From positions 597,539 to 661,538 of the forward strand of contig JAQTWV010000001.1 in assembly GCA_028689115.1 (NCBI GenBank): 64,000 nucleotides of DNA. Direction: 5' to 3'. A model generated the notes under the pieces. That model was not told the DNA's origin, made no database searches, and saw only the letters and a list, made by a program, of their open reading frames with translations. The DNA is from Candidatus Altimarinota bacterium (GTDB lineage: Bacteria > Patescibacteriota > Gracilibacteria > BD1-5 > UBA6164). The stretch's first letter is position 1. Every line of letters starts with the position of its first letter. Positions 32,247-62,827 of the stretch are shown here, piece by piece. The translations under genes and the position numbers were made by a program.

Positions 32247-32822
32247 ATGAATACAACAACTGATTCAAAAAATCTATTAGCACTAAATAAACCAAAGGGT
32301 TATGTAGTCACTAGATCAGATGAACTTGGAAGAAAAACTGTTTATAATCTTTTACCAGATTGGGTTTTTGATGAACAATGGATGCCAATTTGAAGACTTG
32401 ATTTAGAATCTAAAGGTCTTTTATTATTCACAAGAGATGGTAAAATAGGTAATCTATTAACAACACCTGGAAATTGTATTAAAATATATGAAATATGGGT
32501 TAGAGGTCATGTAACTCAGGAACATATTGAAATTGCTTTAAAATGAGTTGAAAGCACAGAAGGTTTACTCAAAGCATTAAGCATAGAAAAAATAGGAAAT
32601 GGTGGAGCAAAAACAAAATTAAGAGTACAAATTGATGAAGGAAAAAATAGACATATTCGTCGCCTATTTGGAGCAATGAAAGACCCAAAATTTGGTACTC
32701 CATTAAAAGTATTAAGTCTAAGTAGAGTTAGTATTGGAAAATTAAAACTAGATATAGAAAGTGGAAAATGGCGTTATCTTTCTGAAGAAGAAGAAAATAT
32801 GTTATTAAAAGATTTGATTTAA
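32247..32822 (+). CDS. rRNA pseudouridine synthase (RsuA/RluE family)
   Basis: 191 residues. Family motifs: ALNKPKGYVVTRSDELGRKT, catalytic aspartate in GRLDLESKGLLLFTRDG, KIYEIWVRG, and NRHIRRLFGAMK. The S4 domain of RsuA is absent, as in RluE/RluB-short forms. A clear AAGGAA ribosome-binding site precedes the ATG. It uses GGT/GGA for most glycines and contains CGT/CGC codons, unlike many neighbours, which fits higher expression. Confidence 0.93.
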
Positions 32823-33007: not shown

Positions 33008-33847
33008 ATGAAAACATTATTTACTTTTTTAATTATTTTTTTAAGTTCTAGTTTTACTTATGCTAATGAAGATATTTCTATCCTATCAAATGAAGTAAAA
33101 ATGTGTACTATGGACTATACTCCTGTTTGCTGAATAAATTGAACAACTTACTGAAATGCTTGTTCCGCTTGAGAAAATAAAATAGCTTATAAATGAGAAT
33201 GTAATAATTATGTAAACAATTCTTACTATACTATATTGCAAAATAAATATTCACCATCTATTAAAAAAAATATTTTAAATTATGATAGTGACAAATTAAT
33301 ACAAGTTCTTGAAAAAATAGATATAGCAATAGAAAACGTAAAAAAATCTAAGATATCTCTAGAAATGCAAAAAAATAAAATAACAACTTATATTTTTTTA
33401 AAAAATATAATTCCAGAGATTGTAGAATTTAAATCAAATAGTATAAAAGATATAACTTTTAGTATTGAATGAGAAAAAATTACATTAAATAATTGAATAT
33501 CAAAAATAAACCAAAGTACAACAAGATATTTTTGAAATGAAGTTTTTGGTGATTTTAATAATGATGAAATGATTGATACAGCTTTTTTAGTTACTCAAGA
33601 TAATTGATGAAGTGAAACATTTTATTATGTTGTAGCATTATTAAAAACACAAAATTGATATGTTTGAACAAATGCTATTTTACTTTGAGACAGAATTGCT
33701 CCTCAAACAAGTAACTATATGGACTGAAAAATTATTGTAAATTATGCTACAAGAAAAGATAGTGAACCTATGACTACTTCTCCTAGTATTTGAGTATCAA
33801 AATATTTTAAAATAACTAATGACAAATTAGTTGAAATAAATAACTAA
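33008..33847 (+). CDS. Secreted protein with Kazal-type protease-inhibitor domain
   Basis: 279 residues. A signal peptide (MKTLFTFLIIFLSSSFTY-A) is followed by a compact Kazal domain at residues about 32-67: YTPVCGINGTTYGNACSAG, with the cysteine spacing C...C-G...Y-x3-C...C of the family. A coiled helical region (QVLEKIDIAIENVKKSKISL) and a C-terminal beta domain (EVFGDFNNDEMIDTAFLVTQ) follow; the DFNNDEMID segment looks like a calcium-binding FG-GAP/dockerin-type loop. Kazal domains inhibit serine proteases; here it would act outside the cell, possibly against host enzymes. Confidence 0.85.
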
Positions 33848-33868: not shown

Positions 33869-33926
33869 AAAACTAAACACAAAAAATCTCCTAAATTTTT
33901 AGGAGATTTTTTGTGTTTAGTTTTTT
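33869..33926 (+). terminator. Long perfect hairpin terminator after the Kazal-protein gene
   Basis: A 27-bp perfect stem (from AAAACTAAACAC to its complement GTGTTTAGTTTT) followed by a T-run. Its inner part and right arm recur as a 52-bp exact copy beside tRNA-Cys. Confidence 0.88.
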
Positions 33927-33932
33927 TTGGAG
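33881..33932. repeat. 52-bp direct repeat, left copy
   Basis: Exact copy of 35379-35430. It begins in a run of six A, includes the hairpin core TCTCCTAAATTTTTAGGAGA, and ends TTTTGGAG. The last five bases (TGGAG) equal the complement of the tRNA-Cys 3' end (C, U discriminator, CCA). Sequence diverges immediately outside. Confidence 0.9.
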
Positions 33933-34035
33933 CCTCACACTAATTTATTCTAACTTTTTGAGAATATAAATATGTTTAATTTAGATGAATTAAAATATTT
34001 TTTTCATAAATATATTTATATTTAAAATATTGAAA

Positions 34036-35298
34036 TTATTTACTTTTTTTAATATTACTATTTTTACTTTTATTTATTATTTTTTTCAACATTTTCTCAG
34101 GTAATTTAACGTTTTTATAACTTTCTCAAAATATTTCCTCATATGTTTTTCTGAATTCCTTTTCTTTTTTTATATCATTAAAAAGGGGCCACTCAATATA
34201 TGCATTTTTATCTATGTCTCAATTTAATCATATTTTTTTCATTAAATTATAAGATTCATTATAATTTTCCTTTATAATTGAAACTGCTAACTTAAAATCA
34301 TCTCAAAATGCTGACCAATCAGTACATCATATAATACTATTTGCTGCTTCTTTATCTCATTGTAAATACTTCGATAATGATTTATTAATAATATAAATAT
34401 ATTTATTTTCATTATTAGAAAATTTTTTTTGTGAACAAGCAAAATCTAACAATTTATCTGCCAATTTGTATTCCTTTAAATTCAATAAGTCAAAACATAT
34501 ATTGTTTAACTCTTTATCAATTTCTTCTAATTTTCAAGGAATAAGTTTACGCCATATCGTGATTGTTAATTTAACAGTAAGTTCATATAAAACATAATAA
34601 CATTCATTAAAATATGAAATATCTATTTTTATTTTATCTCAAACCTTATTAATATTTCATGGATTATTATTTTCACAACAAACTGAAAAATATTGATTAT
34701 TAATTATTCAATTATTATGAACAATTAAATTCCTTCTTTCAGTTAACTCTATAAATTTTCACCATATATCTAAATTTTCTCTTAATTTCATTCAAAGTTT
34801 AGTTTCTAAATACTTGAAATGTTCTTCATGACTATCTCTTAAAACTCATTCCACCTCCTTTTCAATTATATATTTTTTTGCCAAATCTATATTTTCCATT
34901 GAATAAAAATCTGAAAAAGATATTTTTTTATCAGAACTATTTATTATTTCAGGTTTAATATTATATAAGCTAATAAGCAAATTATTTAAGAATGCATCAT
35001 ATTTTGAAATTAATGAAACAAATAATGACTCTGAAATAATATCAAATGATAATCAAGAAATATCCGCATCTTTCTTTAATTGTTCAAAAATTCTAACTTC
35101 TCATTCTTTCACAAAAGGTACTTTTTTTCAATCAATTTCTTCATAATTTATTTTTTTATTTATAAATTTAGTGATTTTTTCAAAAGATTCTATTCTATGA
35201 GGATTAAGTAATAAAAAAGTCATTGGTAAAGTTTCTTTTATTGTTTCAATATTAAGCAAAAAATCTTTTAATATTTCTCATAAATTATTTCATTTCAT
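34036..35298 (-). CDS. HEPN-motif protein (predicted RNase/abortive-infection type)
   Basis: 420 residues, cytoplasmic. Residues about 185-205 carry ELTERRNLIVHNNGIINNQY, which has the R-x4-H motif of HEPN RNases in the usual context (E.RN.ivHn.g). The surrounding region is all-helical (SLFVSLISKYDAFLNNLLIS; LRENLDIWGKFI). The C-terminal half is helical and TPR/SEL1-like (YKLADKLLDFACSQKKFSNN). HEPN proteins of this type are frequent in defence and toxin systems. It is the only gene between two exact 52-bp repeats at tRNA-Cys. No antitoxin or integrase partner is visible. Confidence 0.78.
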
Positions 35299-35378
35299 TT
35301 TACTTTTTATTAAATTTTAAATCTATTTTTTAATATAACCTTTTAACACTAAAAATCAATATCTTTAATTTAAAAACA

Positions 35379-35425
35379 AAAAAATCTCCTAAATTTTTAG
35401 GAGATTTTTTGTGTTTAGTTTTTTT
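35379..35425 (-). terminator. tRNA-Cys terminator
   Basis: Hairpin TCTCCTAAA / TTTAGGAGA followed on the minus strand by a T-run, 20-30 nt beyond the tRNA 3' end. Confidence 0.75.
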
Positions 35426-35430
35426 TGGAG
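35379..35430. repeat. 52-bp direct repeat, right copy
   Basis: Exact copy of 33881-33932. It covers the terminator hairpin of tRNA-Cys and the last five nucleotides of the tRNA. Its left flank no longer pairs with the GTGTTTAGTTTT arm, unlike the left copy, where the whole stem is perfect. Confidence 0.9.
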
Positions 35431-35500
35431 GTGCCATCGGGGTTCGAACCCGAGTACACGGTGTTGCAGACCGTTGTATGAACCACTCTACCATGGCACC
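35426..35500 (-). tRNA. tRNA-Cys (GCA anticodon)
   Basis: 75 nt on the minus strand. Acceptor GGTGCCA pairs with TGGCACC, followed by discriminator T and an encoded CCA. The anticodon arm reads CGGTCTGCAACACCG with loop CTGCAAC, anticodon GCA; the T-arm is CTCGGGTTCGAACCCCGA-like. The D-arm contains GAGTGGTTCATAC. It is followed by a hairpin terminator that overlaps the 52-bp direct repeat. Confidence 0.95.

Positions 35501-61033: not shown

Positions 61034-62827
<1,794 letters not shown>

What the first reader, a model, noticed from the sequence alone, without database searches (positions are those of the whole stretch)
33881..35430. Single-gene HEPN island inserted at the tRNA-Cys terminator, bounded by exact 52-bp direct repeats
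The sequence shows a 52-bp exact duplication (33881-33932 and 35379-35430) around one gene with an RNLIVH HEPN-RNase motif. The repeat ends within the last five bases of tRNA-Cys (discriminator and CCA). The left copy keeps a perfect 27-bp stem while the right copy's left flank no longer pairs, as expected if a recombination joined an ancestral terminator with incoming DNA. No integrase lies inside. It looks like a minimal satellite cargo, moved in trans, carrying a predicted abortive-infection or toxin gene. HEPN RNases as defence effectors are established knowledge; mobility and function here are inference.
Basis: partly seen in the sequence, partly recalled or inferred. Interest (0 to 1): 0.78.

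Follow-up and report, generated by a model that had tools for sequence, protein, structure and literature searches.

The report
Integrase-less defence-gene cassette at tRNA-Cys
A single gene that looks like an RNA-cutting defence gene sits just behind a tRNA gene, in what appears to be the stripped-down remains of a mobile DNA element, and related bacteria keep other small defence or toxin cassettes at the same spot.

Summary
The 52-bp exact repeat is real and occurs only twice in this genome. It encloses one intact 420-aa gene written in genetic code 25 (TGA=Gly), which has an invariant RxxxxH HEPN motif. The gene is absent from the other 352 genomes of its class. Homologs sit inside restriction operons on Nostoc plasmids and beside type I R-M and McrBC-like genes.

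The key finding lies just inside the left repeat. Window 33927-34025 encodes a decayed C-terminal tail of a large serine recombinase (LSR). A profile of such tails built without this window finds this junction as its only hit in the 1.23-Mb genome. In relatives, LSR elements insert into the 3' end of this same tRNA-Cys through the core TGGAGGTGCC, which severs the tail from the recombinase gene. Similar units without an LSR, carrying toxin-like, kinase-like or unknown cargo, occur there in other genera.

The unit is best read as a decayed, integrase-less LSR-element derivative (CIME-like), not a typical tyrosine-integrase island. A live satellite moved in trans is possible but disfavoured: a 3-bp core deletion, a stop in the tail, no P arm and no matching LSR in the genome. 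The RNase and defence function is inferred.

The parts
33008..33847 (+). Left flanking gene: Kazal-domain protein with a probable signal peptide, 279 aa in code 25
   Evidence: PF00050 E 1.3e-6
33869..33924 (.). Left terminator hairpin, perfect 27-bp stem; bidirectional between the convergent Kazal and HEPN genes
   Evidence: MFE -34.3, z -12.7 on the 70 bp before the core
33881..33932 (.). Left copy of the exact 52-bp repeat (terminator plus start of tRNA-Cys end core TGGAG)
33928..33934 (+). Residual attachment core TGGAG-CC (TGGAGGTGCC with GTG deleted)
   Evidence: in-frame loss of the Val codon relative to LEV/MEV in the other distal sites
33927..34025 (+). Element arm (P' arm) encoding a decayed LSR C-terminal tail: LEPHTNLF*LFENINMFNLDELKYFFHKYIYI*
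   Evidence: E 1.7e-4, only hit in G000; above all shuffles
34036..35298 (-). Cargo gene: 420-aa HEPN-like protein, RxxxxH at R189/H194; all 18 Gly codons are TGA
35379..35430 (.). Right copy of the exact 52-bp repeat: tRNA-Cys terminator plus last 5 bases of the tRNA gene
35426..35500 (-). tRNA-Cys (GCA): target gene; its 3' end TGGAGGTGCC (plus-strand reading) is the LSR core

Best explanation
The HEPN unit is an integrase-less derivative of an element that a large serine recombinase (LSR) once inserted at the tRNA-Cys 3' end (core TGGAGGTGCC). In such elements the attachment site lies inside the recombinase gene, so integration severs the gene's C-terminal tail. The tail stays at the far end while the body abuts the tRNA. 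Here the tail is still readable but decayed, the recombinase body is gone, and a copy of the host terminator again sits directly behind the tRNA. This leaves [terminator-core]-tail-HEPN gene-[terminator-core]-tRNA. That class is a cis-mobilizable-element-like relic retained for its cargo. The cargo is most likely an RNase of the HEPN superfamily that acts as an abortive-infection or toxin-type defence gene. Shown by sequence: repeats, tail homology, recurrent LSR use of this site, LSR-less relatives, motif conservation and defence neighbourhoods of homologs. Inferred: order of events, terminator restoration by recombination with an empty copy of the locus, RNase activity and defence role.
For: Exact repeat unique in the genome. 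Tail profile built without the window hits G000 only at window 33936-34001, E 1.7e-4; 17.7 bits in the whole window against at most 9.1 in 60 shuffles, and 23.4 bits locally against at most 11.2 in 3000 shuffles. The arm is 79% identical over 89 bp to the arm in G117, another genus. LSR genes run into tRNA-Cys in G004, G090, G115 and G121, with C-terminal remnants in G108 and G089. Joining the G115 element ends across the core gives one continuous ~509-aa recombinase frame ending in this tail. LSR-less units of the same layout occur in G086 (two) and G117, with a weaker one in G098. The gene is absent from 5 congeners and 352 class genomes. Homologs lie in a type IIG R-M / PLD-SNF2 helicase operon, beside type I R-M and beside McrBC-like genes.
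Against: No same-species empty site or free circle was available. No recombinase P arm remains at the tRNA-proximal end, so restoration of the terminator there is inferred. The HEPN assignment rests on a motif and one sub-threshold Pfam match in a homolog (PF18735, E 1.4e-4); the predicted structure is poor (mean pLDDT 52).
Confidence: 0.72

Rival explanations
1. Live minimal satellite: the unit circularises and integrates as a 1.5-kb cassette through an LSR supplied in trans, as one of a pool of single-cargo cassettes with a shared arm and their own terminator.
For: The same architecture (terminator-core, tail arm, cargo, terminator-core) recurs with different cargo in G086 (two in tandem), G117, weakly G098 and the distal unit of G089. 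The two repeat copies are 52/52 identical, so the duplication is recent or homogenised.
Against: Core deletion and stop in the tail; no P arm; no matching LSR found in G000. The two sites have attR and attB geometry, a pairing serine integrases are reported not to use (PMC3783163).
Confidence: 0.15
2. Classical tyrosine-integrase island: the 52 bp are attL/attR that restored the tRNA end.
For: A repeat of a tRNA 3' end at the island boundary is the usual signature of such islands (PMC4383910).
Against: G000 has one tyrosine recombinase, and every congener has an equally strong hit, so it is probably a housekeeping Xer-type enzyme. The repeat enters only 5 bp of the tRNA. The distal end carries an LSR tail instead.
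Confidence: 0.05
3. Simple terminator duplication by homologous or template-switch events, unrelated to mobile DNA.
For: The perfect palindrome in the left copy suggests fold-back templating. AT-rich terminators differ widely at this site between genomes.
Against: Does not explain the LSR tail arm exactly at the left copy or the matching units in other genera.
Confidence: 0.05

Closest known systems
Cis-mobilizable elements (CIMEs), decayed ICE/IMEs that keep attL/attR (PMC5704250)
   Same: No recombination genes, attachment-site remnants at both ends, tandem accretion at one tRNA 3' end.
   Different: Single gene, 1.5 kb; tRNA-proximal side carries a duplicated host terminator rather than a recombinase arm; distal arm encodes a severed recombinase tail; host uses code 25.
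Dehalococcoides ssrA islands, serine recombinase DsiB (PMC3146451)
   Same: Serine recombinase at the 3' end of a tRNA-like gene, tandem islands, 15 of 31 lack the integration module, and a direct repeat is embedded in a recombinase gene.
   Different: Target is tmRNA and cargo is mostly reductive dehalogenases; a terminator carried in each unit is not described in the passages read.
HEPN superfamily RNases (PMC3710099), nearest Pfam hint PF18735 HEPN_RiboL-PSP
   Same: RxxxxH with a polar residue after R; helical prediction; neighbourhoods with restriction systems.
   Different: No Pfam, PADLOC or NCBIfam family covers this 420-aa protein.

Membership tests
Cis-mobilizable element (CIME) | Bounded by attachment-site sequences on both sides | tested here: met
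   52-bp repeat with core at both ends; distal tail arm. The tRNA-proximal side is attB-like, without a recombinase arm
Cis-mobilizable element (CIME) | Lacks integration and transfer genes | tested here: met
   Only one gene between the repeats
Cis-mobilizable element (CIME) | Shares attachment sequences with a complete element of the same site | tested here: met
   G115 LSR element at tRNA-Cys has a homologous distal arm
Cis-mobilizable element (CIME) | Can be mobilised in cis by an accreted element | not testable with these tools
   Needs an experiment
Autonomous LSR element | Encodes its own serine recombinase | tested here: not met
   No LSR within the unit; only LSR in G000 is at tRNA-Glu
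Integron cassette array | IntI tyrosine integrase and attC sites | tested here: not met
   One tyrosine recombinase in G000 with an equally strong hit in every congener; boundaries are tRNA-end cores, not attC (attC itself not searched with a model)
HEPN superfamily | Conserved Rx4-6H motif with a polar residue after R | tested here: met
   R189 and H194 invariant in 10 diverse homologs; N, H or D after R
HEPN superfamily | Match to a HEPN profile above threshold | tested here: not met
   None for the protein; homolog G460 hits PF18735 at E 1.4e-4, below the curated cut-off
HEPN superfamily | HEPN four-helix fold | tested here: inconclusive
   Model pLDDT 52; only weak TPR-like matches, all E > 0.2
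Anti-phage defence gene | Protects against phage or arrests growth | not testable with these tools
   Only guilt by association

The most novel reading that the evidence does not exclude
The tRNA-Cys site in this code-25 family hosts an integron-like cassette system without integrons: tiny single-cargo units, each with a tail arm, a terminator and a TGGAGGTGCC core, are shuffled in trans by LSRs and stack in tandem. The HEPN unit would be one defence cassette of that pool.
Probability: 0.2. Interest if true: 0.8.

Novelty: new variant of a known kind. Interest (0 to 1): 0.55.

Why it matters
It shows how very small, streamlined bacteria of the candidate phyla radiation can hold defence and toxin-type genes: in minimal units at one tRNA gene, derived from serine-recombinase elements whose recombinase gene is cut by its own integration. 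The severed tail gives a searchable signature for finding further small cassettes without an integrase, and it makes their mobility directly testable. It also points to an uncharacterised HEPN-like family that sits in a multi-gene restriction operon on Nostoc plasmids.

Tried and rejected
(1) The 33993-34040 block shared with G002 was first read as the promoter of a truncated gene (MKKIF...); it is the 3' part of the tail arm, with a relic in G002. (2) Generic terminator family: rejected, two copies only. (3) Own-genome mover: only an LSR at tRNA-Glu and one Xer-type tyrosine recombinase. (4) Viral contigs and phage records for the HEPN gene, and viral contigs for the G115 LSR: nothing. (5) Structure model from two sequences is too poor for a fold call. 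(6) Flanking repeats around the homologs in G687 and G478: none convincing, so the cassette form is not tied to this gene.

Full report
Check of the observation. The window lies in a 1.23-Mb assembly (G000, contig C3: 597539-661538). The 52-bp repeat at 33881-33932 and 35379-35430 is exact, and its palindromic core occurs nowhere else in the genome within 3 mismatches. The tRNA-Cys is at 35426-35500 on the minus strand. Under the standard code the enclosed gene is broken. With TGA read as Gly (code 25) it is one 420-aa frame, 34036-35298 minus. Glycines invariant in homologs with the standard code (G197, G220, G357) are encoded by TGA here, which supports that code. All 18 of its Gly codons are TGA, so the gene has probably been in code-25 bacteria for a long time and was not recently taken from a standard-code donor.

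The cargo. No Pfam, PADLOC, NCBIfam or PHROG family covers the protein. Full-length homologs at 30-37% identity exist in two Nostoc plasmids, a Crinalium plasmid, a Maribacter MAG and a distant Patescibacterium, with shorter relatives elsewhere. R189 and H194 are invariant in ten diverse members, with a polar residue after R as in HEPN RNases (PMC3710099). One relative matches PF18735 (HEPN_RiboL-PSP) at E 1.4e-4, below threshold. On both Nostoc plasmids the homolog lies between a type IIG restriction-methyltransferase and a PLD-SNF2 helicase, in what looks like one operon. In Crinalium it is next to type I R-M genes. In G460 a shorter relative is next to an AAA gene and a partner that look like McrBC (my reading of the translations). 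In its own class the gene is present in 1 of 353 genomes. This is good circumstantial evidence for a defence gene; RNase activity is not shown. The AlphaFold2 model from two sequences is poor, and its C-terminal TPR-like matches are all insignificant.

What the site is. The 3' side of tRNA-Cys differs between all congeners whose flank could be read. In G004 an LSR gene reads straight into the tRNA, and another contig holds terminator + TGGAGGTGCC + foreign DNA next to the ancestral neighbour gene, as expected for the other half of the split site. Across the family, LSR genes end in tRNA-Cys in G004, G090, G115 and G121, and LSR C-terminal remnants abut it in G108 and G089 (the two remnants are my reading of the translations). 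Related LSRs do the same at tRNA-Glu in G000, G001 and G002. So the tRNA-Cys 3' end is a recurrent LSR attachment site.

The decisive detail. G086, of another genus, has two tandem units without an LSR behind tRNA-Cys, 659 and 866 bp long. Each starts with the core and a shared ~95-bp arm encoding LEVP/MEVP-xSRLIEIFxRINxFxLDDLKGFLxxLK, followed by cargo (a ParE-like toxin plus a small partner; a 162-aa protein) and a terminator. The window carries the same arm immediately right of its left repeat: LEPHTNLF*LFENINMFNLDELKYFF. A profile made from four other arms, without the window, finds exactly this place as the single hit in G000 (E 1.7e-4). Whole-window and local shuffles never reach its score. 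The arm is 79% identical over 89 bp to that of G117. Relative to the others it has lost the Val codon GTG in the core and gained one stop, which is why the visible repeat ended at GGAG.

What the arm encodes. In the complete G115 element (5.05 kb, LSR against the tRNA, arm at the far end), joining the two ends across the core gives a single recombinase frame of about 509 aa whose last residues are this arm's peptide. A tRNA-Glu-type LSR copy in G110 likewise continues through its core into a tail, though that copy has an internal stop. The arm is therefore read as the C-terminal tail of the LSR, severed by integration.

Relatives of the unit. Tail arms occur next to tRNA-Cys in G000, G086 (two), G089 (two), G115 and G117, weakly in G098, and in G107 on a short contig whose position relative to tRNA-Cys was not established. 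Joining G089 contigs C19 and C8 rests on my reading of their identical ends. Cargo includes CBASS (CD-NTase plus Cap15) in G089 with an LSR remnant, a kinase-like two-gene set in G117 with a similar set in G107, and small proteins of unknown function. In G000, G086, G117 and G098 the tRNA-proximal boundary is a terminator hairpin and not an LSR end.

Mechanism. The simplest history is: an LSR element with HEPN cargo entered; its recombinase end was lost; and the tRNA regained a terminator by recombination with an empty copy of the locus from the same species, which explains the 52/52 identity. The steps after entry are inferred. A live cassette moved in trans remains possible because the same layout recurs. 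Against it stand the damaged core and tail, the missing P arm, the missing cognate LSR in this 80%-complete genome, and the attR-attB geometry (PMC3783163). The perfect 27-bp stem of the left copy may be a later fold-back templating event.

Comparison with what is known. Integrase-less islands with attachment remnants are known as CIMEs (PMC5704250). Serine-recombinase islands at tmRNA in Dehalococcoides, about half of them without the integration module, are the nearest documented parallel (PMC3146451). What appears new here is the host group, the single-gene size, the terminator bounding each unit, and the severed recombinase tail as signature. My literature searches were limited. Hence: new variant of a known kind.

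Noticed in passing
L168:4057-5600 and L170 (G089, same family): CBASS pair (CD-NTase and Cap15 effector) plus a DUF2726 nuclease-like gene beside an LSR remnant at tRNA-Cys.
   Followed up: partly
L076:3214-10574; L077:2132-10565: Nostoc plasmids: apparent operon of type IIG restriction-methyltransferase, 183-aa protein, HEPN-like protein and PLD-SNF2 helicase; possibly an undescribed defence system.
   Followed up: partly
L071:4576-6078, L072, L074, L107, L113, L130: LSR genes in these bacteria read antisense into the target tRNA (Glu or Cys), so integration swaps the recombinase's C-terminal tail; this might control excision.
   Followed up: partly
G004:C80 (L069, L070, L042): Two LSR copies 96.6% identical over 1281 bp and several TGGAGGTGCC/TGGAGGTACC cores, suggesting stacked elements behind tRNA-Cys.
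   Followed up: partly
window 33008-33847: Kazal-type protease-inhibitor domain in a probably secreted protein of a very small bacterium.
   Followed up: no
window 32247-32822 and 61034-62827: Genes with unusually low TGA use for glycine (0.11 and 0.32, against 0.5-1.0 for the other 27 genes counted).
   Followed up: no
L088:5715-6641: A distant HEPN-like relative lies directly 3' of tRNA-Gln in another Patescibacterium, without convincing flanking repeats.
   Followed up: partly
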